Below are positions 7,016 through 63,817 of a DNA stretch of 64,000 nt, piece by piece. Position numbers and translations under genes: made by a program. Within the stretch, counting starts at the first letter, position 1, and every line of letters begins with the position of its first letter. Under the pieces are notes generated by a model. It was not told where the DNA came from. It saw nothing but the letters and a program-made list of their open reading frames with translations, and did not search any database. This DNA is from Thermoplasmata archaeon (GTDB lineage Archaea > Thermoplasmatota > Thermoplasmata > Methanomassiliicoccales > Methanomethylophilaceae), in NCBI GenBank assembly GCA_015063165.1, contig SUSZ01000005.1, positions 46,223 through 110,222 on the forward strand. Direction: 5' to 3'.

Positions 7016-8398
7016 ATGAAGCGGCTCAATCAGATCGTCTGGTACCTGGGGTATTTGATATCGATCATTCCGGTGTGCATGATAGTCATCTACAGCTTCG
7101 GCGCCGATATCCTGGTGTACATCCCTCTTGTGATAGGCATCGTAGGGACCCTGGTCCTGGTGGCTGTCGGCAACGGAGGCGACCTGAACATGGCCCCTCC
7201 GCCTGTCACGGACTATCCTGTGCCGTTCATCGGTCTGAGCAAGATCGGCGGGAGCCAGGTGTACTATCTGGCCAAGAACGGGTTCATGATGTTCGTGGTG
7301 CCATTCGGCGCTGTCAGCGCTCCGATCCTCGCGGTCCTCATAGCGCTCATCACCATTCCGATCGGGCTGGTCATGTTCATAATGGCCGCCTGCCTGATAC
7401 CATATCTCGCCGTCGTGGACGCGCTGTACCTTGCGACGCTGTTCCTTGCCAAGGTTATCGACAGGCACCAGTACAGCGTCAACACCTCCAGGTTCGTCTG
7501 TCCGGAGTGCGGGAAGAAGTCCTACCGTCCTGTGTACGATGTCGAGGGCAGGATGATCCAAGGCTTATGCCCCACAAACAAGGGGATATTCAGCCAGGAG
7601 ATGGAGGTCCGCAGCGTCCCGTGCTTCGGATCCAAGGGCGGAAGGAAGAAGCTCAATCAGTACTGTCCCGACTGCAAGGCCACCGTGGAGACCGAGGAAG
7701 GAAGGTCGTTCGTCGTGAGCATGGCAGGAGCCAAGTCCTCCGGCAAGACCAGCTTCTCTTTCTCCGTCCTGGGCGAGTTCATGTCCACCAACGGGAACCA
7801 CAAGGCCTCCAGCGAGAATTTCTACTTCTCCAGGGACGACGGCCTGCTCGACGACTACCGCAGAGGCATCTGCAATCCTACTCCGCTGAGCTACAACACG
7901 CCCCACATCCTGACATTCGAGGCCGGCCGTTTCGTCACCAAGAGGCACATCTTCATGTGCGACGTGAGCGGAGGCTTCTTCTCCAGCGACTACAGCACCG
8001 ACATCCAGCCTCAGTACGAGTACAACGACGCGATAGTGTTCACCCTGGACCCTACATGCTACAACGCCCAGGACGTCGCGTACGCGGCCTATGTGGGATT
8101 CATGGAGAAGTACCGCCTCTACAACAAGATGGACGCCTCCAAGAAGATCACCGTCCCTATCGCCGTGGTAGCAACCCGCGCAGACAAGCCGGGATCCTTC
8201 GGGAACCTGGTCGGAGCCGAGCTCAGGGAGAAGATGGTCGAGGAGGGCTACTTCCCTCTGATAAACATGATCGAGAAGGACTTCCTGGCGGTGACGTTCT
8301 ATTCCTGCGACGTGTCCAAGGAGGGAACGGCCTCGGAGATAATGAAGCATCTCAGTGATGCCACGGCCTACAAGATCGGGCCTCTCTTCAAAGAATGA
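7016..8398 (+). CDS. Membrane-anchored zinc-ribbon/P-loop GTPase (double-GTPase/TRAFAC-like, tentative)
   Basis: N-terminal TM helices; CPEC...CPDC ribbon; Walker A GAKSSGKTS; DVSGG; VATRADKPG (TKxD-like). Confidence 0.7.
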   Translation: MKRLNQIVWYLGYLISIIPVCMIVIYSFGADILVYIPLVIGIVGTLVLVAVGNGGDLNMAPPPVTDYPVPFIGLSKIGGSQVYYLAKNGFMMFVVPFGAVSAPILAVLIALITIPIGLVMFIMAACLIPYLAVVDALYLATLFLAKVIDRHQYSVNTSRFVCPECGKKSYRPVYDVEGRMIQGLCPTNKGIFSQEMEVRSVPCFGSKGGRKKLNQYCPDCKATVETEEGRSFVVSMAGAKSSGKTSFSFSVLGEFMSTNGNHKASSENFYFSRDDGLLDDYRRGICNPTPLSYNTPHILTFEAGRFVTKRHIFMCDVSGGFFSSDYSTDIQPQYEYNDAIVFTLDPTCYNAQDVAYAAYVGFMEKYRLYNKMDASKKITVPIAVVATRADKPGSFGNLVGAELREKMVEEGYFPLINMIEKDFLAVTFYSCDVSKEGTASEIMKHLSDATAYKIGPLFKE

Positions 8399-8402
8399 AT
8401 GG

Positions 8403-8431
8403 GGCCGGAGGGGGCAGATTCCCCCTCGGCC
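8403..8431. terminator. Bidirectional hairpin terminator between convergent GTPase and Hsp70 genes
   Basis: ggccggaggggg...ccccctcggcc inverted repeat. Confidence 0.55.
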
Positions 8432-8439
8432 AGAAGTTT

Positions 8440-10020
8440 TCATCCGACCAGATATCTTCTGGCGTTGCGGATCTGGTCGTCGTTCAGCAGACCCTTGGCG
8501 GAGAGCGTGTGGCTCTTCGTGATGTCCCTGAACGTGCAGGTGCATATGATGTCGGCCTTGTCGTTGGCCTCGATGGAGACCTGGACGGGCTCCCCTGCGC
8601 GGCTGTCCGAGGGGATGTCCACGATGAAGGACCCGACCTCCTCGCACTCCTCCTCGGCGACCTCGAGGTTCTCGTCGCTCTCCTCGAACTCGCTCTGGAA
8701 GATCACCACTCCGAGGGCGGTCTGTCCGTCCTTGTGGACGTAGTACTCCCCCTTGTTGGCGATCGGCAGGGTGCGGTTCTTGAAGATGATGTTGGAGATG
8801 AGGTACTTTTGCTGGCTCTCGTCCCAGACTTTGACCCCCATGGTGTGGGAGAGGACCTTCTCGATCTCGATGTCCCCGATCTTGGGGGCGAACTTGGACA
8901 GCTTCGCGTCGGCCTCTCCGACAGGCTGGCCGTCGGTTCCGGTCTCGACGACGACGTCGCGGGTGTTCTGATAGATGGCGGCTCCGGTGGCGATGGCCAG
9001 ATCGGGGTCGTGGAGAAGGATCTTGGACTCGCAGGAAGGGTACGTGGCGATGAGCCCGGCCTTGACCTGGGGCATGCGGGAGGACCCTCCGACCATGACG
9101 AAGTCGTCGATGTCGTCGATGGTGAGCTTGGCGCTCTCGAGGGCGCTGTCGATCTTCATCATGGTGGCCTGGAGCTCACCGGCGGTGGCCGCTTCGAACT
9201 CCTCGCGGGTGACCGTGTATCTGACGGTGGAGGTTCCGATGCGGATTCCTCCCTTGACCTCCTTCAGGGTGCTCAGGGAGATCTTCTGGCCCTCCGCCTT
9301 GGACTTGATGTCGGCGATGACGTCCTTGTCGGCCTCGAGCTCCTCCATGGTGATGTTGGCCTGCTCGCATATCTTGTCCTTGATGATCTGGATGAGGGCC
9401 GCGTCCCAGTCCTTTCCTCCCAGGTTGCAGTCTCCGTCCGTGGAGAGCACTTTGAACCTGTTGTTGTCGATGCTCATGATGGTGACGTCGAAGGTTCCTC
9501 CTCCGAGGTCGTAGACAAGGATGTTCTTCTTTCCGGTGCTCTTGAGGCCGTAGGAGATCGCTGCCGCGGTGGGTTCCTCGATGATGTTGACCTCCTCGAA
9601 CCCGGCGATGAGTCCAGCCTGGCGGGTGGCCTCCCTCTCTTTTGGTCCGAAGTAGGCGGGACAGGTGATGGTGGCGCTTTTCAGCTCCGCGTCGGGGTAT
9701 TTCTCGATGAAGTCGTCGACCAGCTTGCGGACGATCCTGGCGGACAGCTCGATAGGCCCGTATTCCACTCCGCCGATGTTTATGCGCCAGGTGTCTGCCT
9801 CGCTCATGTTCCTCTTGACCGCTTCCACGGTGATCTCCGCGAAAGGGGCCTGGTCCTTGGCGGTCTCTCCGACGCAGAACTCTCCGTTGTCGTAGGTGAT
9901 GACCGATGGAGTGGTGTCATGCTCCTGGTTGTTCTTCACCACGATCGGAGTGCCGGTCGCGTTCATGATCGAAAGGCAGGAATACGTAGTTCCCAGATCG
10001 ATGCCTATGTCGTATATCAT
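8440..10020 (-). CDS. Hsp70/DnaK-like ATPase with truncated C-terminus
   Basis: GIDLGTTYSCLSI, EPTAAAISYGL, VYDLGGGTFDVTI, VMVGGSSRMPQV; 526 aa, no obvious full lid. Confidence 0.93.
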   Translation of the reverse strand: MIYDIGIDLGTTYSCLSIMNATGTPIVVKNNQEHDTTPSVITYDNGEFCVGETAKDQAPFAEITVEAVKRNMSEADTWRINIGGVEYGPIELSARIVRKLVDDFIEKYPDAELKSATITCPAYFGPKEREATRQAGLIAGFEEVNIIEEPTAAAISYGLKSTGKKNILVYDLGGGTFDVTIMSIDNNRFKVLSTDGDCNLGGKDWDAALIQIIKDKICEQANITMEELEADKDVIADIKSKAEGQKISLSTLKEVKGGIRIGTSTVRYTVTREEFEAATAGELQATMMKIDSALESAKLTIDDIDDFVMVGGSSRMPQVKAGLIATYPSCESKILLHDPDLAIATGAAIYQNTRDVVVETGTDGQPVGEADAKLSKFAPKIGDIEIEKVLSHTMGVKVWDESQQKYLISNIIFKNRTLPIANKGEYYVHKDGQTALGVVIFQSEFEESDENLEVAEEECEEVGSFIVDIPSDSRAGEPVQVSIEANDKADIICTCTFRDITKSHTLSAKGLLNDDQIRNARRYLVG

Positions 10021-10205
10021 GTCGAATCCCCTGGTTCATTTGAGTAAAACGACCCGATTCCGCATGATTTACTTATCATAAAGCGGTTTCGGAACGCTAT
10101 CATGTTCGTAATGTGGGCATGTCCTGCCACCTGTCTGTTGCTCTTGTCCTATGGTGTTTTTCCTTGACAACATTAGTAAAATAATCGGAAAATGATAAGG
10201 GGTGC

Positions 10206-11414
10206 ATGGCCTTCATCTGTCCGTACTGTTTCGAGTCGATAGGAAGGATAGACGACGTGCATTACATGTGCACGGACGTCGGGCATAACAGCAGGTCAAT
10301 CCTCGAGGAAGATCCCGAATACGCGAGCTACCGCGGTCTCGAGACGTACACTCGCACCACCCATGTCGTCAGGGATTACAACAGGAGGGACCCCAGATGC
10401 GACGTGTGCGGTTCCCGTCTCTCGAGGATGCTGTGCCCGGTGTGCCACAACACGCTCCCGTACGGGATAGACAAGTGGGACCTGAACTTCTTCGCGATAT
10501 TAGGGCCTCGTGCCGTCGGAAAATCGCATTACATAGGCGTGCTGATCAAGGTGCTTGAACGTATGAGCAAGGAGTTCCAGTGGTCGATCAGCCCTATAGA
10601 CTCCAAGGTCAACGACCTGTACAACAAGAAGTACGCCAATTCGTTGTTCAACAAGAAGAAGGGCATAGACCCTACCCGCCGTGTGACGCTGGACATCTAC
10701 GAGCCCCTGGCGTACACGATCAAGGCCTACAACGGGAAGGTGGCGGGCCTGTTCTTCGTGGACACGGCAGGAGAGGACGTCTCCGCCGACGATTACGCCT
10801 ACACGATCCAGAAGTACATCGCGAACTCGTCCGGAATCATATTCCTGGTGGATCCGCTGCAGTTCGACTACGTCAAGGACAGGATAGGGGCCAGGGACAG
10901 CAACAGGGCGAACTACACCCATACTCTTTCGGTCATAAGCCAGGTCTACCGCGCTGGGAAGGGGATGAGCATCAACAAGAAGATCGGAATCCCCCTGGCA
11001 GTCGTGGTCACCAAGTGCGACGTCCTCATCAAGGAGCCCACCAACGAGATGGAGGAGGAGGTCTTCCTCGGGTCGGACTCAGCGATCAACAACCCCCGCA
11101 AGTACGGCGTGTTCGACGAGGAGAACAGCCAGCAGATAAGCGCGGAGATAGAGGCCTTCCTGGACCGCGTGAGCGAGGGGCAGTTCCCCCAGGCCGTCAA
11201 GAACGATTTCAAGGATTACAGGTACTTCGCCGTGTCCGCTTTGGGATCCGAGCCGGACGCCAGCGGGAGCATCAGCGGAGTGTCCCCGATAAGGGTCGAG
11301 GACCCGATGCTCTGGCTGATGGAGAGGGAGACCGCGGTTATCAAGGCTCAGAACACCCAGGAGTCGGTAAAGAAATCCTTCGGCGGATTCTTCAGGAGGC
11401 GTTTCGGTGTCTGA
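10206..11414 (+). CDS. Zinc-ribbon GTPase (TRAFAC-like, second GTPase of the locus)
   Basis: CPYC...CDVCGSRLSRMLCPVCHN ribbon; Walker A GPRAVGKSH; DTAGED; VTKCD. Confidence 0.72.
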   Translation: MAFICPYCFESIGRIDDVHYMCTDVGHNSRSILEEDPEYASYRGLETYTRTTHVVRDYNRRDPRCDVCGSRLSRMLCPVCHNTLPYGIDKWDLNFFAILGPRAVGKSHYIGVLIKVLERMSKEFQWSISPIDSKVNDLYNKKYANSLFNKKKGIDPTRRVTLDIYEPLAYTIKAYNGKVAGLFFVDTAGEDVSADDYAYTIQKYIANSSGIIFLVDPLQFDYVKDRIGARDSNRANYTHTLSVISQVYRAGKGMSINKKIGIPLAVVVTKCDVLIKEPTNEMEEEVFLGSDSAINNPRKYGVFDEENSQQISAEIEAFLDRVSEGQFPQAVKNDFKDYRYFAVSALGSEPDASGSISGVSPIRVEDPMLWLMERETAVIKAQNTQESVKKSFGGFFRRRFGV

Positions 11415-13788
11415 GCAGCTCGTCTACACCCTCTGCAGGAGCGGGGTCGGGGTGGTGGCCGGATACGGGGTGTATTCCGCCTCCGCAGGCATGGCGACCT
11501 CGGACAGGACAGAGATAGAGTCCAGGTACAGCACATACATCGCCCCCGAATCCATACCGGTCTCCGGAGGCGACGACCCAAACATCGCGAAGATGCCCCG
11601 CAGCCTCGGGTTCTCCAAGCTCGCTTCGGGTCACGAATGCATCACCCACCAGCTGTACACCGGAGCCGACTACGACAATCCTTCCAGGATGGGCAACTAC
11701 ATCTCGCATTCGATAGTCGACCCTTGCTTCGGCTTCTATCCTATCGAGGCCCAGGGATTCGACGGATTCTGCCTGGACATGCGCTACGACGAGATGGACT
11801 GCGATGTGGCTCCTCCGGTCTAGCCGGCTGTGGAGGTCGCCTGTCCTCCAATTATGGGCCGCGTCAAGGCGTTCGTAGGAAGCCACGACAAGATCTTCCT
11901 CCGCGAGCTGGCCTACAGGATTCTCGATTCAATGGACGACAAGCTGAAGAAGGTGTTCGTCGCGGAGAAGTACGACAACGCCGACTGGATGGCCGCAGCG
12001 ACACTCCTGTTCCCGCTGGAGATGTCCAAGCAGGTGTCGTTCGTGACGTACACCGGAAGCCCGGACAGATGCTTCCAGAAGCTCGCAGGGCTGTTCGATA
12101 CTGACGACCTCACGCCGACGGTCTCGCTGTTCGCCATATCCGTCAGGGATCCCAAGGAGTCCGCCAGGGACGAGCTGTTCGACTCCTATGTGGACAACGC
12201 CTATTCCGAAGGCTCCGACAGACAGGCGTTCTTCGACTTCCTGTCAAGGGTCGGATGGAAGGATATCGGGAAAGGGGTCATCGACGCGTACCACATGTTC
12301 GCTGTATGCGAGAAAGGTGTCGTCCCTCCGGAATCGGCCCGTCTGAGATGTCTGGACGCTCTGAAGCAGACTATGGTCTCCGCAAAGGACGATGACATCG
12401 CATCGGTGTATAATGTCGTCAAAGACCGCATGGACCCCGCCATGGCCGACTTTTTCGGCAGCGTGGCCGTGCCCAGGATGAAGGACAGGACGACCGCCGA
12501 AAGGATACTGGCGGAGGTGACGGCATACACGCTGGAACCGTCACGCAGCCTCGGCGTGGGATCCGAGGTCGTCGAGAATTACAGCAGATACAAGGATCCC
12601 GTTCTGAGATGCGTGGACCTGGGCGCCTTGGACCTCATCGACTATCCGGCAGCTAGGTATTACTGTTACAAGGCGTGGTCCGAGTCCAAGGATTCCAAGA
12701 TGGCGGACATCATCTCGGGATACGGCCCTCTGGATGACCTGTTCATAGACGCTTCCTGCAGCGACGGCAGATCCTGCATAGAGGCTCTGGACAAGCTATG
12801 CCCGCTATCGGATGCCGCCAAGGGAAGCATCAAGGACGGCATAGTGTCGCGTGCCGGAAGCCTTCCCAGCGCTCTTCTGAACGACGTGTACGGATTCGGA
12901 TTGACCGAAGACAAGGAACTGGCCGATCGTCTTTCCGAGGCGGTCTCGCAGAGGGACGACCGCCAGGCGATGGAGAGGTCGTTCGTGGACGTCGCGATAG
13001 AGAAGGGCGACAACACCGCCGCCACATCGCTGGCCAAGAAGATCGCGGACTCGTGCATGGAGAGCAACGGGGACATAGCCTCGACCATACGCTTCATAGG
13101 CCAGAGGGCCTCCTCTCTCGATTGGAAGTGCTCGGCCAGCCTGATCACCGCTCTTTCCAAATCCATCGATTTCACCGGGTTCGGCCCGCTGCCCGCTGTC
13201 AGGGAAGCTCTGGCCGCTTTCCCCGACATGGAGGGAATGGTCACCTCCGAAGAGGCTTCCCGCATACGCCTTCTCGACATGGCTGACAGGGTGACCAAGG
13301 ATAGCACCATGGTCGACCCTATGGACGTATCGTCTTTGAGTGCCGAAGACAGGGAAGCGTTCGTGAAGCTCTGCATGGGAAAGACGATTCCAAGGAAGGG
13401 AGGGGACAAGTGGGTCTCCGACCGCTTGAAGCTGTTCTCCGGATGTCCGGAAGAGGCCGCCAGACGTATGGGGACTATAGTCTCCCAATCGGTGCTGGAC
13501 AAGCTGGACGCCGAGATGGTCGCCGCGTTCATCGTCTCCGCGAAAGAGAACGGGGCGTCGGACGAATCCGTCTACGCCAATCTCAAGCTGGACGGCAAGC
13601 AGGCTTCCAAGGTGAGGAAGCTCTTGAAGGACGACATCTTGGAAGCGTTCAACAGCCACTTCAAGGAGGGGGACGCTGGCTCCCACAAGGGCCTGTTCTC
13701 CAAGCCGTCGGAGGAATCGGAAAAGAAAGATGACAAGCCCGAGAGCAAGCCCAAGAAAGGAGGGCTTCTTGGGCTCTTCAGGAGGTGA
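11407..13788 (+). CDS. GTPase-associated protein 1 (GAP1)-like, one reading frame interrupted by in-frame TAG at 11821-11823 (split in ORF track as 11407..11823 and 11830..13788)
   Basis: Both ORFs are in the same frame with one TAG between (GTC TAG CCG GCT GTG GAG); N-terminal QLVYTLCRSGVGVVAGYGVYSASAG and downstream FPLEMSKQVSFVTYTGSP suggest one protein; start overlaps upstream GTPase stop. Confidence 0.6.
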
Positions 13789-13792
13789 CGCC

Positions 13793-15820
13793 ATGAAGGT
13801 AGGGATAGACCTGGGTACGACATATTCGGCCGTCGCATACGTCAACAAGGACGGCCAGCCCGAGATAATCGAGAACGAGTTCGACGAGGAGACCACCCCC
13901 TCCATTGTGGCGTTCTGCGACGGCGATATCGTGGTGGGACGCGAGGCCAGGGAGCTCCAGGCCGCCGGGCTCAGCTCCGTCGTCTCCTCCTTCAAGAGGA
14001 ACATGGGGGACCCCGAGTACTTCTACGAGTACGACGGCAAGAAGTACAGCGCCACCGACCTCTCCGCGATACTCCTCAAGCATATGAAGGAGGTGGCGGA
14101 GCAGCGCATGGGACAGACGGTCGATTCCGCGGTCATCACCGTTCCCGCCTACTTCAACGATCTCCAGAAGATAGCGACCATGGAAGCCGGACGCGCCGCC
14201 GGGCTGAACGTGGAGATGCTGGTGCACGAGCCTACCGCCGCATCCGTGTGCTACGGGATGAAGAACTCCAAGAACAGTACCATGATGACATACGACCTGG
14301 GCGGAGGGACCTTCGACATCACCATCCTCCGCATCACGGACGGATCCATAGAGGTCGTAGGAACCCTAGGCGACCCCAACCTGGGAGGAAAGGACTGGGA
14401 CGAGGTCGTCAAGGAGATCCTGGCCGACCAGTTCATGGACGAGTTCTCGATAGACCTTCACAACGACGACGAGTTCGTCACGAAGTTCTCCGTCGAGGCA
14501 GAGAAGATCAAGAAGATGCTGTCGTTCAACTCCCCCATCCGCGTTCCGCTCAGGTTCTCCGGGAAGAGCATGGTCGCCGTCGTGACCAGGGAGGACTTCG
14601 AGTTCAGGTCCTCCGGTCTGGTGGATTCCACCGTCCAGATGTGCGAGCAGCTCCTGAGCGACCTGTCGATGACCTGGAGCGACCTCTCCGACGTGATCCT
14701 GGTGGGCGGTTCCACCCGCCTTCCTGCTATCAGAGAAGCCCTGAAAGCCTCCGGAGTCAACCTGATAATCAACGAGGACACCGACACCGCCGTGGCCAAG
14801 GGAGCGGCTCTGCTGGCGACCTCGGACGAGGGACGCATATCCAAGAGGAAGCCCGGGGAGGTGGACACCCGCATCATGAAGGTCAGCGACGCGATAGCGC
14901 ACAGCCTGGGCGCCCTCGCCGAGGATTCCTCCGGGACCCGTTACATCAACGACGTCATCATCCCCCGCTCGTCCAAGATCCCGGCGGTCGAGAAGCGCCC
15001 GTTCGAGATCAGGAAGGGGAACTTCACCGAGAAGATAGACATCTACACGCTTCAGGGGGAGAGCAAGCATCCCCTGGAATGCACCGTCTTGAAGATGGTC
15101 ACCGCCGAAGGGATAGAGAACGACGGCAGAGGGGTCAAGATCGAGATCGAGTACTCCTACGACAGGAGCGGCATGGTCAACGTCCAGGCCTTCCAGGACG
15201 GAAAGCCGCTGACCATGGTCAAGGGGGAGGTCCCCGAGGACGTCTCGTGGATGGGGAAGCCGATAGAGAGGCAGAAGATGGAGTCAGTCCCGGTGTATGT
15301 CATCCTGTCCATGGACCTCTCCGGCAGCATGTGCGGCAAGCCTATCAAGAACGCCACCAAGGCCGCCCACGACTTCGTGAGCATGCTCCCCAACGCGAGG
15401 TTCGCGGTCATAGGCTACGCCAACAAGACCAAGGTCCTCTGCACCGACAAGAGCGCCAAGGAGGTCGGACGCTACATCGACGCCCTCCAGGACACCGAGG
15501 TCGGAGGAGGGAACACCGCCCATCCGTTCGACGAGATCCTCCGCATAAGCCCTCGCGGAAAGTTCAAGGTGTTCGAGATAACGCTCACCGACGGGATGTG
15601 GAGCTGCTGTCCCGCCGCCATTGAATCGGCCAGCAAATGCATGGATGTCGGCATCGGATGCATCGCGGTGGGATTCGGGTCCGCCGACTACAAGTTCCTG
15701 AAGAAGATCTCCTCCATGGACGAAGGCGCCCTCATGAGCAGCGTGGACGGACTGTCGGCGACGTTCTCGACCATCGCATCCACGATCAGCACCGGCGGAT
15801 TCAACAGGTTCATCAGGTGA
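13793..15820 (+). CDS. Hsp70-like ATPase fused to C-terminal vWA domain
   Basis: GIDLGTTYSAVAY, EPTAASVCYGM, YDLGGGTFDITI; then vWA/MIDAS: VYVILSMDLSGSM...GGGNTAHPF...LTDGMW. Confidence 0.92.
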   Translation: MKVGIDLGTTYSAVAYVNKDGQPEIIENEFDEETTPSIVAFCDGDIVVGREARELQAAGLSSVVSSFKRNMGDPEYFYEYDGKKYSATDLSAILLKHMKEVAEQRMGQTVDSAVITVPAYFNDLQKIATMEAGRAAGLNVEMLVHEPTAASVCYGMKNSKNSTMMTYDLGGGTFDITILRITDGSIEVVGTLGDPNLGGKDWDEVVKEILADQFMDEFSIDLHNDDEFVTKFSVEAEKIKKMLSFNSPIRVPLRFSGKSMVAVVTREDFEFRSSGLVDSTVQMCEQLLSDLSMTWSDLSDVILVGGSTRLPAIREALKASGVNLIINEDTDTAVAKGAALLATSDEGRISKRKPGEVDTRIMKVSDAIAHSLGALAEDSSGTRYINDVIIPRSSKIPAVEKRPFEIRKGNFTEKIDIYTLQGESKHPLECTVLKMVTAEGIENDGRGVKIEIEYSYDRSGMVNVQAFQDGKPLTMVKGEVPEDVSWMGKPIERQKMESVPVYVILSMDLSGSMCGKPIKNATKAAHDFVSMLPNARFAVIGYANKTKVLCTDKSAKEVGRYIDALQDTEVGGGNTAHPFDEILRISPRGKFKVFEITLTDGMWSCCPAAIESASKCMDVGIGCIAVGFGSADYKFLKKISSMDEGALMSSVDGLSATFSTIASTISTGGFNRFIR

Positions 15821-15824
15821 TCGG

Positions 15825-18740
15825 GTGGGCACGGAATGCTTCAGGGAGCTCGGCGTGGATCCCTTCAAGACATACACGCCCTCGGAGCTGGACCGCATCG
15901 TCAGCGAGAAGAGGAGCGAGTACGAGGTCCTGAAGTCGAAGGCCCAGACCGTTCCCGAGAAGAACAAGATAGGGAGGGAGCTGGACGCCCTTCCCGGGTA
16001 CCGCAAGGACCTGGCCGACGCCGGGTGCCGTTCCAAGGCTCAGGAAGAGGTCCTGGCCATAGTCACGAAGGACCTGGAGCGCCATCTCTTCCACCGCATC
16101 GACGGATCCTCCGTGTTCTTCGAGAAGCAGATAGACGACATACTGGAGCCGGCTAGGAAGAAGAACTGGAACGTCGGACCGGAAGTCGTGGGCCACATCA
16201 AGGGAGCGTCCCTGGTCAGCGAGAGCGACTTCAAGGACATCCCCGCGGACAACGCGTTCAACATCCTGAAGCTCCTCGGAACCGACGATATCGTGTCTTG
16301 GACCAACGGGGCCATCAGCAAGCTGTACTCCGAAGGAAGCGACAAGGTCCCCGCGAAGGTGTCCGCCGAGACCTCTTTCCCGACGTTCAAGTCGACCATC
16401 ATGACCCTGGCCGCCAGGGCGCAGAAGTTCCAGAAGAACTCGCACTATCCGGATGCCGAGAAATACTCCGCCCTTCTGAAGAAGGTCACCCCGATGTTCA
16501 TGAACGAGGCCTCCTACACGAAGTTCAGGACCGCCATGGTCATGTACTCCGTCGAGGAGGAGCTCCAGTCCAGCACCACGTCCATGGACTTCCAGTCGAT
16601 CTCCTCCCTGATCAACACCAAGGTCGCCGGCAGGGGCGTGGATGTCAACGACGCCCTCCGCGAGCTTGAGAGGTTCTGCCTGTCCAAGGGTATAGTCGCC
16701 GACTTCTCCAAGGTGACCAAGGAATGCACCGTGTGCGGTTTCTGCGGGTGCAGGTTCGAGGCCGACAAGGAGACCAACTTCTGCCCTTACTGCAACAAGC
16801 CGATAGCGATAGACTGCCCTCGCTGCGGGGTCCGCAACCCCTCTTCCAATCTTCACTGCAAGGGGTGCGGCATCGATTTCTCTCTGATCTCCAACCTTCC
16901 GTTCATCGAGAAAGGCCTGAAAGAGGACATAAGGAACGGGAACCTGCTCTCCGTGAAGGAGACCCTGGCCAAGTTCGAAGGCTACGAGGATTTCGTGGAC
17001 AAGTCCCTGCTCAAGGAGGCGGACGGATTCCTGAAGGACACCAAGGCCCTGTTCGAGGAGCTGGATTCGATGGAGGCCGCCAAGAGGTACTGCGCCGCCT
17101 TGGAGAGGTGCGACGAATACCTCCGCGGACACTCCGCTTTCGACGAGATCAGCGACAGGAGGGCCGAGTACGCCGCCATAGTGGACGACATAGGCAAGAG
17201 GTTCAGAGCCGTCCCGGCGGGCTCCAGCGACCGCTACATAGCCCTCGTAGGGGAGTGCTCCGACCATCCCGACCTGATCAGATACTTCAACAGTAACCGT
17301 CCGCCCTCTCCCGCCAGCGTCACGGTGTCCCAGAACGAGGACGGCCATGTCCTCGTCTCGATGGACTCCCTTCCCCCGAAAGACGCCAGCTACCTCCTGG
17401 TCCGCAAGGAGGGCTCGTCCCCTCTGAACGAGAACGACGGGGTGCAGGTGGCGGAGACCAAGGACAAGGCGTACGTGGACCGCTCCATCTCGTTCGGAGT
17501 GGAGTACCGCTACGCCGTCTACGCCAAGCGCTGGGGGGTCACTTCCACTTCCGCCGCCCTTTCCAAGCCCATAGCGGTCTTCGCAGACGTCATAGACGCG
17601 TCCGCATCGCCTTCGGAGACAGGCATCCGTCTGGACTACAAGGTCCCGAAAGGATGCTCCAAGGTGCTGGTATACAGGTCGGAAGGGTCCGAGCCCTCCG
17701 CATCCGGGGTGCCTTACGCCGACAACGGGACGAAAAGCTTCTTCGTGGACAAGGACGCCCAGGACGACTCGACGACATACAGCTACAGGATCGTCGCCGA
17801 ATACTCGCAGAAGAGGGCCATACCCATGAGGACGAAGGGGGTCGTGGTCTCCTGCAAGCCGATGTCTCCGCCCGACCCGATATCGGACCTCTCGGTGAAG
17901 TTCGCTGGAGGGAGGTTCTCGGTCGGATGCACCTCCGAGGAGGACTACGAGCTGTACTTCTCCAAGGACGCAGCCGACATAGGCATGTCCACCTGCACGG
18001 TAGCGGATTTGGCCCACAGCGCGGAACGCATCGAGGGCATCATGAAGAGCGTGGAAGGGGTCCGCTCCTTCACCCTTCCCCCAGGGGCCGTCGGCAAGGT
18101 GTATCCTGTGGTCACGATAGGCGGCACGGCCATCATAGGCAACGGCGTCCACGTCTCCATGCTGGAGGACGTCTCGGACATCAGGACCGTGATGGACGGG
18201 GACGTCTGCAGCCTGACTTTCAAGTGGCCGAAGGACTGCGGGATGGCCAAGGTCGTCATGAGGTCCGACCGCTATCCTGCGGACGCTTCAGACGGCGAGG
18301 ACGACGTCACGATAATGCAGGAGAGGTACATCCGCGACGGGAACTTCAGGTTCAAGGTCCCGTTCCAGAGGACCTACGCCACTGTCTACGCCCAGTACGG
18401 ATCCAAGGGCAACTCCCAGGGATCCTCCATGATGCTGTCGTCCAGGCAGAACTTGCCCGAGATAAGGTACTCCTTCTCCTATTCGTTCCTAGGCAGGAAA
18501 TGCACCTGCAAGATTTCGGTATCGGACGATATCGACGCTCTGCCGGCGATGATCCTAAGAGGATTCGACAGGTCGATGCCGACGAAGAGCTCCATCGGGA
18601 AGACCTTGGAGGAGATCCCGGCGCAGGAGCTGCGCGGTTTCAATCTGGCCGTTCCCGTGGGAGCCCCGGCTAAGAACATGAAGCTGTTCTTCGTCGATGC
18701 GGACGATAACAGGAGATACCGCCTCATCCACCCTGTCTGA
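15825..18740 (+). CDS. 971-aa protein with N-terminal helical (possibly J-like) region, two zinc ribbons and C-terminal beta-rich (FN3-like) repeats
   Basis: CTVCGFCGCRF...CPYC...CPRCGVRNPSSNLHCKGCG; repeated PPSPASVTVS.../SYLLVRKEGS... beta segments; GTG start 5 nt after upstream stop. Confidence 0.7.
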   Translation: MGTECFRELGVDPFKTYTPSELDRIVSEKRSEYEVLKSKAQTVPEKNKIGRELDALPGYRKDLADAGCRSKAQEEVLAIVTKDLERHLFHRIDGSSVFFEKQIDDILEPARKKNWNVGPEVVGHIKGASLVSESDFKDIPADNAFNILKLLGTDDIVSWTNGAISKLYSEGSDKVPAKVSAETSFPTFKSTIMTLAARAQKFQKNSHYPDAEKYSALLKKVTPMFMNEASYTKFRTAMVMYSVEEELQSSTTSMDFQSISSLINTKVAGRGVDVNDALRELERFCLSKGIVADFSKVTKECTVCGFCGCRFEADKETNFCPYCNKPIAIDCPRCGVRNPSSNLHCKGCGIDFSLISNLPFIEKGLKEDIRNGNLLSVKETLAKFEGYEDFVDKSLLKEADGFLKDTKALFEELDSMEAAKRYCAALERCDEYLRGHSAFDEISDRRAEYAAIVDDIGKRFRAVPAGSSDRYIALVGECSDHPDLIRYFNSNRPPSPASVTVSQNEDGHVLVSMDSLPPKDASYLLVRKEGSSPLNENDGVQVAETKDKAYVDRSISFGVEYRYAVYAKRWGVTSTSAALSKPIAVFADVIDASASPSETGIRLDYKVPKGCSKVLVYRSEGSEPSASGVPYADNGTKSFFVDKDAQDDSTTYSYRIVAEYSQKRAIPMRTKGVVVSCKPMSPPDPISDLSVKFAGGRFSVGCTSEEDYELYFSKDAADIGMSTCTVADLAHSAERIEGIMKSVEGVRSFTLPPGAVGKVYPVVTIGGTAIIGNGVHVSMLEDVSDIRTVMDGDVCSLTFKWPKDCGMAKVVMRSDRYPADASDGEDDVTIMQERYIRDGNFRFKVPFQRTYATVYAQYGSKGNSQGSSMMLSSRQNLPEIRYSFSYSFLGRKCTCKISVSDDIDALPAMILRGFDRSMPTKSSIGKTLEEIPAQELRGFNLAVPVGAPAKNMKLFFVDADDNRRYRLIHPV

Positions 18741-18748
18741 GGACGGAC

Positions 18749-19399
18749 TCACTCTTCGTGCTTCCCGATGTAGCGGTACACGTTGACCTTCTCGGGCAGG
18801 AGAACCTTGTCGTCGAGCACGTATCCCGAGCTGACCACCTCGGCCACGGTCTTGTTCAGGGCGGGGTTCTCGGTGTCGATGACCTTCGCCTTGTTGTGCC
18901 TCGGGTACTCGTAAGGGGTGCCGGCCTCGTCGCGGAACCTGACCGCTCCGTTGACCAGGAGGATCTCCTCCAGCATGTCTCCGAAGTTGCACACCGCGTC
19001 TATGGCGTCATCGATGGTGACGCTGTCCCTGTTCTTCTCCATCCTCTCCACGAGGTCGTCCGCGGCCTCTCTGACGTTGGCAACCTTGATCAGGAGCGAC
19101 TTCACGGAGGACTTCTTGACGTCCGTGAGCTCGCCCTTCATGGTCTTGTCGAACTGGGACAGGACCTCGTAGGACATCATCCTCTCGGAGGCCAGGGAGG
19201 TCAGCTTGTCCATCTTGGCCAGGAGCTCGTCGATCCTTGCATCTGGGGCAGGCGCTGTCTCGGGGGCCGGAGTCTCCACGCATCCGGGGCATTCTTCGAC
19301 AGGAGTCTCGGTGGTCTCCTCGACCACGGGCTGCTCTTGGGGCTCTTCGCAGGGCGAAGCGGTGTTCTCGGGTTCGTTGTTGACCTGCATCTCTTCCAT
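18749..19399 (-). CDS. GrpE-like nucleotide exchange factor homolog (divergent)
   Basis: Acidic N-terminus, coiled coil, C-terminal VVSSGYVLDDKVLLPEKVNVYRYIG resembling GrpE beta-domain GYxLxDRVLRPAxVxV. Confidence 0.55.
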   Translation of the reverse strand: MEEMQVNNEPENTASPCEEPQEQPVVEETTETPVEECPGCVETPAPETAPAPDARIDELLAKMDKLTSLASERMMSYEVLSQFDKTMKGELTDVKKSSVKSLLIKVANVREAADDLVERMEKNRDSVTIDDAIDAVCNFGDMLEEILLVNGAVRFRDEAGTPYEYPRHNKAKVIDTENPALNKTVAEVVSSGYVLDDKVLLPEKVNVYRYIGKHEE

Positions 19400-19559: not shown

Positions 19560-19910
19560 TCAGCCCATTCTGTCAAGAACGCTTCTGGCCCAGGGTACGG
19601 TGTCCTCATATTCCTCCCTGTCGAACGAGAGCTGCTCGGGGATCTCGGAGAAAAGCTCGGACCTCATCTCGCATTCGCCGTCGGTCTTCCCGACTATGAC
19701 CGCTGCGCACACGTCGCAGTAGCCCAGGTCGCGGACTTCCAGGACCTTTATCCTGTATCCGGCCTCCTCCTCGAACTCGCGGACGGCCGCCTCTTCGGAG
19801 GTCTCCCCTTCCTCCACATGGCCGCCGGGCATCTCCCAGCCGCCGCGGCGCTCGTTGTAGACCATCAGGAAGCGGTCCTCGTCGAAAGCTACAGCGTAGG
19901 CGGTCCTCAT
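19560..19910 (-). CDS. NUDIX hydrolase
   Basis: Nudix box GHVEEGETSEEAAVREFEEEAGY. Confidence 0.9.
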   Translation of the reverse strand: MRTAYAVAFDEDRFLMVYNERRGGWEMPGGHVEEGETSEEAAVREFEEEAGYRIKVLEVRDLGYCDVCAAVIVGKTDGECEMRSELFSEIPEQLSFDREEYEDTVPWARSVLDRMG

Positions 19911-62494: not shown

Positions 62495-63817
62495 TCATTC
62501 GATCTCCCAGGGAAGCTTGGGGACCAGCAGCTCCGTCATCATCAGAGCGTCAGCAGACTCCAGCGTCCTGGCGTGATCCAGAACGGTCATCTTCTCGGGA
62601 TCTATGTCCCTTCCTATACCTGCGACGGCGGCTTCGTCCTCCATCATCTCCTTCGCGGTGAAGTACAGCCTTTCCGCTATGACCGTCCACGCGCCGTCCT
62701 CTATGAAGGGCTCCCCGTACTCGTTGTCTTTCCATTTCTCCATGAAGGACTCGGACTTCACCCATACCGGCGGACCGGGGTGCTTGTAAGTCTTCGACAG
62801 GACGTCGCGTTCCAGCTCGAACATTATCACGAGCTTGTCGTCCTTCATGTCGTGGACCGCGCGAAGCACGTTGAACGAGAACTAGTTGAGCTTCCTTCCC
62901 AGCGCGTACTGGGTCTTCCACAGCTGCGAGTACAGCACGTCGTCCAGGACGTTCGGCTTCTCGAATATGACGGTCAGGAGCCTGGATCCGTGGTTCTCCG
63001 CTTTCGAGGCGAGCTCCCTCTTGGACATGGGCGATCTCTCCTTGGGGAAGAAGAACCTCATGTCGGGGTTAGCCAGATAGGCTTTGGCCGCCGCTATGAA
63101 CAGCGCCATGGTATCCTCGTGCACCGCGGAAGCCACGTTCCTGCGGGAGTCCACCGGGTCGTACACCACCAGGGGCGAGACCATGGACGGGCCTTTGCTC
63201 TCTATTATCAGAGTGGCGTTGTCCTTCCACTTCTGCGATCCTTCCAGAACTCCGCGGAACGTCCCGTAGTACACCACCAGGATCTCGCACAGGTACCCGG
63301 AGAATCCTCTGGCATCCTGCTCCGCGCCGTACGCGCCTATCCCTTTCATGAACTTCTTGAGCAGACGGACCTCGTTCTTCTGCTCGTCCGCGAGGTGGGA
63401 CAGTATGTACTGCGTGTGGAAGGGCGTCCTGTCCACTGCGCTCTGGAGCTTAGCTGTGCTCTCCAGGCGGTAGCATGGGACCAGGTCGACCTCTATGCCC
63501 TCGAACTCTCCCCTGGTGTAGGGATGGTCGGAGAACATGCGCACTCCGTGGAGGACGTCCTCGCCTATCTTCAGGCCTATGCGCTCCAGCTCGTCGTGCG
63601 GGACCGTGTCCGGAAACATCATGAACACGTCGAAATCGGGATTCGAGAGGAAGGTTCCTTTGGAGAACGACCCGGCCATCCTGACCTCTACGTCGATGCC
63701 GTGCTCTGCCGCATACCTTATGACGATGGCTTCAAGGCGGTCCGCCTTGTCCTGCAACGATGCCACCACCTCTGCGGAGGGCACGATCATCTCCAATACC
63801 TGCTCCTCTAGATTCAT
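62495..63817 (-). CDS. cca: tRNA CCA-adding enzyme (class I), one frame interrupted by in-frame TAG at 62882-62884 (split in ORF track as 62882..63817 and 62495..62869)
   Basis: N-terminal GSFSKGTFLSNPDFDVFMMF, VDLVPCYR; C-terminal HPGPPVWVKSESFMEKW...GEPFIEDGAWTVIAERLYFTAKEMM lies in the same frame after TAG (KLN-TAG-FSFNVLRAVHD). Confidence 0.85.

What the first reader, a model, noticed from the sequence alone, without database searches (positions are those of the whole stretch)
7016..19399. Candidate undescribed GTPase-Hsp70-GrpE system
Sequence shows a contiguous block: TM/Zn-ribbon GTPase, stand-alone Hsp70, Zn-ribbon GTPase, GAP1-like protein, Hsp70-vWA fusion, a 971-aa Zn-ribbon/beta-repeat protein and a GrpE-like protein. 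Four of the plus-strand genes (10206-18740) have overlapping or near-abutting ends, implying one transcript and translational coupling. Paired GTPases with GAP1 are known to me as a predicted conflict-system core; linkage to two Hsp70 paralogs plus a dedicated GrpE-like factor suggests a self-contained sensing/remodelling machine. Function (defence, stress or envelope) is inference; no obvious toxin effector is visible.
Basis: partly seen in the sequence, partly recalled or inferred. Interest (0 to 1): 0.85.

Follow-up and report, generated by a model that had tools for sequence, protein, structure and literature searches.

The report
Archaeal GTPase-gated Hsp70 gene block
A rumen methane-producing archaeon carries a rare archaeal version of a previously predicted bacterial "GTPase + Hsp70 chaperone" system. 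One of its genes must be read through a UAG codon, probably as the rare amino acid pyrrolysine, and its closest relatives all carry a stripped-down sister operon whose universality argues against a purely anti-virus role.

Summary
The gene block is real at the stated coordinates. It is not an undescribed system: it matches the GAP1-N2 double-GTPase systems of Kaur et al. 2020, "HSP70 + GrpE" theme. Pfam finds DO-GTPase2, GAP1-N2, GAP1-M, HSP70, VWA and GrpE. The 971-aa protein is a zinc-ribbon/fibronectin-III array with a J-like N-terminus lacking HPD.

New points:
(1) Intact GAP1 requires reading an in-frame UAG (codon 139). The genome has PylS, tRNA-Pyl and UAG-containing mtmB. A 52%-identical homologue has UAG in the same column. 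The single-copy CCA-adding enzyme also has an in-frame UAG, so this pyrrolysine is probably incidental.
(2) The seven-gene block is sporadic (7 of 147 genomes of the order) and fills a clean rpsO/Nudix slot that is empty in many congeners.
(3) A GAP1-less five-gene sister operon (Hsp70-vWA, FNIII, GTPase, GrpE, Hsp70) was complete in the sampled neighbourhoods of five genera, except GrpE in one. Its GTPase marks 31 of 31 genomes of the genus.

The sister operon favours a constitutive GTPase-gated chaperone over toxin-type defence. No effector was found. Novelty: new variant of a known kind.

The parts
7016..8398 (+). TM + zinc-ribbon GTPase (GTPase1), 460 aa; four N-terminal hydrophobic segments, Walker A GAKSSGKT
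   Evidence: Pfam DO-GTPase2 only weak here (12.5 bits), but the related genes in L151 and L152 score 25.7 and 33.9 bits
8440..10020 (-). stand-alone Hsp70 (526 aa), no lid, no fusion
   Evidence: PF00012 E 8e-86; conserved at about 80% in four congeners
10206..11414 (+). zinc-ribbon DO-GTPase (GTPase2), Walker A GPRAVGKS, DTAGE
   Evidence: PF19993 27.5 bits, over its 27.0 cut-off; Walker A in all 21 homologues
11407..13788 (+). GAP1 (GAP1-N2 + GAP1-M + helical-repeat C-terminus), 793 aa with UAG read through
   Evidence: PF20013 E 2e-13, PF20014 E 5e-10; AF2 C-terminal helical repeat pLDDT about 90
11821..11823 (+). in-frame TAG, codon 139 of GAP1, putative pyrrolysine codon at the N2/M boundary
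   Evidence: tRNA-Pyl and PylS in genome
13793..15820 (+). Hsp70-vWA fusion (675 aa) with intact MIDAS (DLSGS, TDG)
   Evidence: PF00012 E 8e-103 + PF00092 E 2e-8; MIDAS conserved in 20 of 20
15825..18740 (+). J-like (no HPD) / zinc-ribbon / helical / FNIII-array protein, 971 aa
   Evidence: AF2 model m8379a0109fb7; Foldseek FNIII arrays prob 1.0; J-like alignment
18749..19399 (-). divergent GrpE dedicated to the block
   Evidence: PF01025 E 2e-11; housekeeping GrpE elsewhere scores 145 bits
6432..6875 (-). rpsO (S15), left flank of the insertion slot
19560..19910 (-). Nudix hydrolase, right flank; directly adjacent to rpsO in many congeners lacking the block

Best explanation
The block is an archaeal, chromosomal member of the GAP1-N2 double-GTPase/HSP70-GrpE systems. 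Shown: domain content, gene order, conserved motifs, distribution. Inferred: a membrane-anchored GTPase and a soluble zinc-ribbon GTPase, bridged by the helical-repeat scaffold GAP1, form a nucleotide switch at the membrane. The FNIII/J-like protein binds the client or ligand and hands it to the Hsp70-vWA fusion, whose vWA holds an extended peptide; the second Hsp70 and the dedicated GrpE complete the ATP cycle. GTP hydrolysis gates assembly or disassembly of this chaperone on its target. The machine is a remodelling or quality-control device whose core (the GAP1-less sister operon) is present throughout the genus and in four related genera. The GAP1/TM-GTPase version is an accessory copy that may sense envelope damage or infection. 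UAG 139 in GAP1 is translated, most likely as pyrrolysine, and is probably neutral.
For: Domains. Co-conservation of the seven genes in five species at one site, and in single-strand order in two more. Co-conserved GAP1-less operon in five genera; its GTPase in 31 of 31 genomes of the genus. Separate housekeeping DnaK/DnaJ/GrpE, so the block's GrpE is dedicated. No toxin or effector domain; no PADLOC match. UAG decoding: PylS, tRNA-Pyl and mtmB with TAG; purifying selection downstream of the UAG; UAG in the single-copy CCA-adding enzyme.
Against: No experiment. The order of action is inferred. The J-like domain lacks HPD, so canonical stimulation of Hsp70 ATPase is doubtful. GTPase1 scores below the Pfam cut-off in this genome. 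The GAP1 AF2 model is poor in residues 1-150. The sporadic insertion and the divergence of GTPase1, GAP1 and FNIII would also fit a conflict system.
Confidence: 0.5

Rival explanations
1. Anti-virus or conflict system as proposed by Kaur et al.: the FNIII protein or GAP1 senses invasion, the GTPase pair sets a threshold, and Hsp70 multimers or vWA act as the effector assembly.
For: Same family and grammar as the predicted conflict systems. Sporadic distribution, 7 of 147. Clean insertion in a slot that holds other cargo in some congeners. GTPase1, GAP1 and FNIII at 52-62% identity to the window's copies while most flanking genes are at 75-96%.
Against: No effector gene. Not in PADLOC. The core without GAP1 is in every genome of the genus and in four other genera. 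No plasmid copies. No experimental test in the papers found.
Confidence: 0.33
2. GAP1 is a broken pseudogene, or the TAG is an assembly error, so the block is decaying.
For: An in-frame TAG.
Against: TAG in the same column in an independent species' MAG (G084), where the proteins are 52% identical; pN/pS below 1 on both sides of the TAG. The genome decodes UAG.
Confidence: 0.03
3. Split gene: UAG is a real stop; a free GAP1-N2 domain and a separately initiated GAP1-M/C protein are made.
For: The stop falls at the N2/M boundary and a GTG follows 6 bases later.
Against: The frame is uninterrupted in G092 and G090 and in the partial G093 copy. In the UAG-bearing homologue (L016) the codon at the place of that GTG is GTA. 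No ribosome-binding site is apparent before the GTG.
Confidence: 0.06

Closest known systems
GAP1-N2-type double-GTPase systems, HSP70/GrpE theme (Kaur, Burroughs, Iyer, Aravind 2020, PMC7159879)
   Same: DO-GTPases with zinc ribbons, one with four N-terminal TM segments; GAP1-N2/M protein downstream of a GTPase; HSP70, GrpE and a second HSP70; FNIII protein, probably with a J-like N-terminus
   Different: Archaeal; one Hsp70 carries a C-terminal vWA domain (not mentioned for this theme in the passages read); J-like region lacks HPD; no C-terminal TM on GTPase1; no effector; a GAP1-less core exists; UAG in GAP1
Pyrrolysine proteins of Methanomassiliicoccales other than methylamine methyltransferases (Borrel et al. 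2014, PMC4153887)
   Same: In-frame amber codon in an ordinary gene whose relatives have a sense codon; few genes end in TAG
   Different: A different gene (GAP1); the codon is shared with one other species
Housekeeping DnaK-DnaJ-GrpE
   Same: Hsp70 + J-like + GrpE logic
   Different: Hsp70-vWA fusion and GTPases; J-like region without HPD; separate paralogous genes

Membership tests
GAP1-N2-type DO-GTPase system (HSP70/GrpE theme) | DO-GTPase of the TRAFAC class with conserved Glu in the Walker B motif | tested here: met
   GTPase2 PF19993 27.5 bits against cut-off 27; DTAGE in 19 of 21 homologues. GTPase1 below cut-off in the window
[quoted passage not shown]
   Hydropathy: two double hydrophobic stretches at 6-57 and 89-149 (about four TM), no C-terminal TM
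GAP1-N2-type DO-GTPase system (HSP70/GrpE theme) | GAP1 with N2, M and C domains | tested here: met
   PF20013 and PF20014 over cut-off, with UAG read through. The C region is a helical repeat, not matched by a Pfam model, so the C domain itself is not confirmed
GAP1-N2-type DO-GTPase system (HSP70/GrpE theme) | FNIII-repeat protein | tested here: met
   Foldseek hits to FNIII arrays, prob 1.0, E 1e-10
GAP1-N2-type DO-GTPase system (HSP70/GrpE theme) | FNIII protein fused to a DnaJ domain (or TPR) | tested here: inconclusive
   J-like N-terminus aligns end to end to DnaJ (hhalign score 21.6 against a maximum of 12.1 in 20 shuffles) but has no HPD; Pfam silent
GAP1-N2-type DO-GTPase system (HSP70/GrpE theme) | HSP70 and GrpE in the neighbourhood | tested here: met
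   conserved in relatives
GAP1-N2-type DO-GTPase system (HSP70/GrpE theme) | Variable effector gene or domain | tested here: not met
   No effector domain among the seven genes; the paper counts HSP70 itself as a possible effector in such systems, so this is not decisive
Known anti-phage defence system (PADLOC 2.0.0) | Match to any defence model | tested here: not met
   No match for any of the seven proteins at E 0.01
Known anti-phage defence system (PADLOC 2.0.0) | Protects against virus when expressed | not testable with these tools
   needs experiment
Pyrrolysine protein | In-frame UAG in a gene of an organism with pylS and pylT | tested here: met
Pyrrolysine protein | Pyrrolysine present in the protein | not testable with these tools
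   needs mass spectrometry

The most novel reading that the evidence does not exclude
The UAG at the GAP1-N2/M boundary is a deliberate switch. When pyrrolysine (that is, methylamine metabolism) is available, full GAP1 is made; when it is not, only the free GAP1-N2 domain is made, so the chaperone/GTPase machine is tuned to the archaeon's energy source. The UAG in the same column of a second species is what keeps this open.
Probability: 0.06. Interest if true: 0.8.

Novelty: new variant of a known kind. Interest (0 to 1): 0.52.

Why it matters
In the papers found, double-GTPase/GAP1 systems are known only as predictions, and the passages of Kaur et al. read here state only that they are present in "a few archaea". 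Here one sits in gut methanogens that also carry a GAP1-less sister operon, found throughout the genus and in four related genera. That splits the machine into a conserved core (Hsp70-vWA, FNIII, GTPase, GrpE, Hsp70) and an optional GAP1/TM-GTPase layer, and makes the core's function testable without assuming phage defence. The UAG codons in GAP1 and in the CCA-adding enzyme add to the evidence that these archaea use UAG as an everyday sense codon. Gene callers that stop at UAG would split GAP1 in two here.

Tried and rejected
GAP1 on plasmids: none. Hsp70-vWA against plasmids: only the DnaK part matched. GAP1 in viral contigs: tool gave no answer twice, so untested. Weak PF20013 hits in two other Thermoplasmatota genomes (G298, G362) lie in neighbourhoods that match none of the block's proteins, Hsp70 included, so not counted. 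GAP1 AF2 model: N-terminal 150 residues unreliable, Foldseek gave only generic helical repeats. J-domain by Pfam: no match. G312 DO-GTPase hit is a 39-residue match at E 1e-3, rejected. Pyl-code paper: none held. Pseudogene reading rejected.

Full report
Observation. Pfam on the seven predicted proteins gives HSP70 (8440-10020 minus, and 13793-15820 plus with a C-terminal VWA), DO-GTPase2 (10206-11414), GAP1-N2 and GAP1-M (11407-13788) and GrpE (18749-19399 minus). The 7016 protein has about four N-terminal hydrophobic segments, CxxC pairs and a Walker A motif. It is below the Pfam cut-off itself, but TM-GTPase genes related to it by tblastn in other genera (L151, L152) score 25.7 and 33.9 bits against DO-GTPase2, the second over the 27-bit cut-off. 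The 971-aa protein has zinc ribbons. An AF2 model of moderate confidence (mean pLDDT 69) matches fibronectin type III arrays in the PDB with probability 1.0. The family's N-terminal region aligns end to end with the J-domains of these genomes' own DnaJ proteins far better than with shuffled controls (score 21.6 against at most 12.1), but lacks HPD; Pfam does not call it.

Known kind. Kaur et al. 2020 describe GAP1-N2-type double-GTPase neighbourhoods whose second theme has HSP70, GrpE, sometimes a second HSP70, and an FNIII protein fused to DnaJ or TPR, with zinc-ribbon GTPases, one of them with TM helices. The block fits this theme. The claim "undescribed" therefore fails, although no experimental study of such a system was found and the passages read mention only "a few archaea".

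The UAG. GAP1 is split by an in-frame TAG at codon 139, between GAP1-N2 (1-121) and GAP1-M (155-236). The genome has PylS over its cut-off, a tRNA-Pyl with CTA anticodon next to it and two mtmB genes each with one TAG. In G084, whose GAP1 is 52% identical, the TAG is in the same column; G092, G090 and G093 have Leu (CTG or CTT) in the motif APPV-L-P. pN/pS is about 0.2 upstream and 0.3-0.7 downstream of the TAG, so the downstream part is under constraint. In the same window the CCA-adding enzyme (62495-63790 minus), found once in the genome, has a TAG at codon 303 where congeners mostly have Glu or Asp. Of about 50 model-called genes in the window, after setting aside GAP1 and the CCA-adding enzyme, one ends in TAG. 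This is in line with the low TAG-stop usage reported for M. alvus (1.6%, PMC4153887). I conclude that UAG is read as sense, most likely Pyl, and that GAP1's Pyl is probably incidental. The shared column in G000 and G084 is not explained by the tree of the flanking genes: parallel gain, recombination within the genus, or an ancestral TAG lost more than once all remain possible.

Distribution. GAP1 of this kind occurs in 7 of 147 genomes of the order, all in one genus. In five of them the block lies between rpsO and a Nudix gene (in G084 and G093 the two ends are on separate contigs). In many congeners rpsO and Nudix are next to each other with about 50 to 200 bp between them, and in several the slot holds other genes. 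In G091 and G083 a second form lies elsewhere, next to arginine-biosynthesis genes (my reading of the sequences), with two TM-GTPases, and there GTPases, GAP1, Hsp70-vWA, FNIII, GrpE and Hsp70 all run on one strand (GrpE in G083). This independent arrangement shows that the stand-alone Hsp70 and GrpE belong to the system. The named records found are Methanomethylophilaceae or Methanomassiliicoccaceae MAGs, three of them from sheep or water-buffalo rumen or omasum.

The sister operon. The same genome carries, on contig C15, Hsp70-vWA, FNIII, zinc-ribbon DO-GTPase, GrpE and Hsp70 in one direction without GAP1 or TM-GTPase. The DO-GTPase is in 67 of 147 genomes of the order, in 31 of 31 of the genus, and in five genera, all of one family. 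Twelve of twelve neighbourhoods fetched from those genera have the operon in the same gene order, GrpE being undetected in the two from g14. In five of them, from g6, g7 and g9, a TM-GTPase-like gene lies a few kilobases away. In a sample of 392 genomes of the phylum the GTPase is otherwise absent, apart from one 39-residue match. In a tree of the Hsp70-vWA proteins and in one of the GTPases the GAP1-bearing copies form one clade, apart from the GAP1-less copies.

Mechanism. Shown: domain content, motif conservation (Walker A in all GTPases aligned, MIDAS residues in 20 of 20 vWA domains), a dedicated GrpE beside a housekeeping set, co-inheritance. Inferred: a GTPase switch at the membrane, scaffolded by GAP1, gates an Hsp70-vWA machine that is fed by the FNIII/J-like protein and reset by GrpE. 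The GAP1-less core, present in every genome of the genus, argues for a constitutive remodelling role. The sporadic GAP1 version, whose GTPase1, GAP1 and FNIII proteins are at 52-62% identity while most flanking genes are at 75-96%, may be specialised for envelope damage or conflict. I found no effector and no PADLOC match.

Limits. Genomes other than the named records are unnamed; several are incomplete MAGs (G084 82%, G093 61%), so absence of PylS in those two is not evidence. J-like and TM assignments are weak or hydropathy-based. Bacterial relatives of the block were not compared directly, so the claim that the Hsp70-vWA fusion is new to this theme rests only on the passages of Kaur et al. 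that were read. The viral-contig scan did not run.

Noticed in passing
window 62495-63790 (-), TAG at codon 303: The single-copy CCA-adding tRNA nucleotidyltransferase has an in-frame TAG, where congeners have mostly Glu or Asp; an enzyme expected to be essential would depend on UAG decoding.
   Followed up: yes
L116 3415-12054 (G000:C15), L117, L119, L151-L162: GAP1-less sister operon Hsp70-vWA / FNIII / DO-GTPase / GrpE / Hsp70, conserved across five genera of the family.
   Followed up: yes
rpsO-Nudix interval in L076, L078, L080, L081: The slot that holds the block in five species holds other genes elsewhere (an AAA/DUF4143 ATPase, an MFS-like transporter, membrane proteins): a possible insertion hotspot.
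   Followed up: partly
L013 end of the FNIII gene; L015 end of the FNIII gene: The FNIII gene's C-terminal end differs between species: in G092 the frame runs on about 95 codons past the alignment end, over the opposite-strand GrpE gene.
   Followed up: partly
L151 4047-5105, L152 4674-6245, L157 17014-18630, L158 14041-16011: TM-GTPase-like genes a few kilobases from the GAP1-less operon, next to pirin-like and pseudouridine-synthase-like genes, without GAP1.
   Followed up: partly
L114, L115 (G362, G298): Weak GAP1-N2-like proteins in other Thermoplasmatota beside coiled-coil and membrane proteins and no Hsp70: perhaps another GAP1-type system.
   Followed up: no
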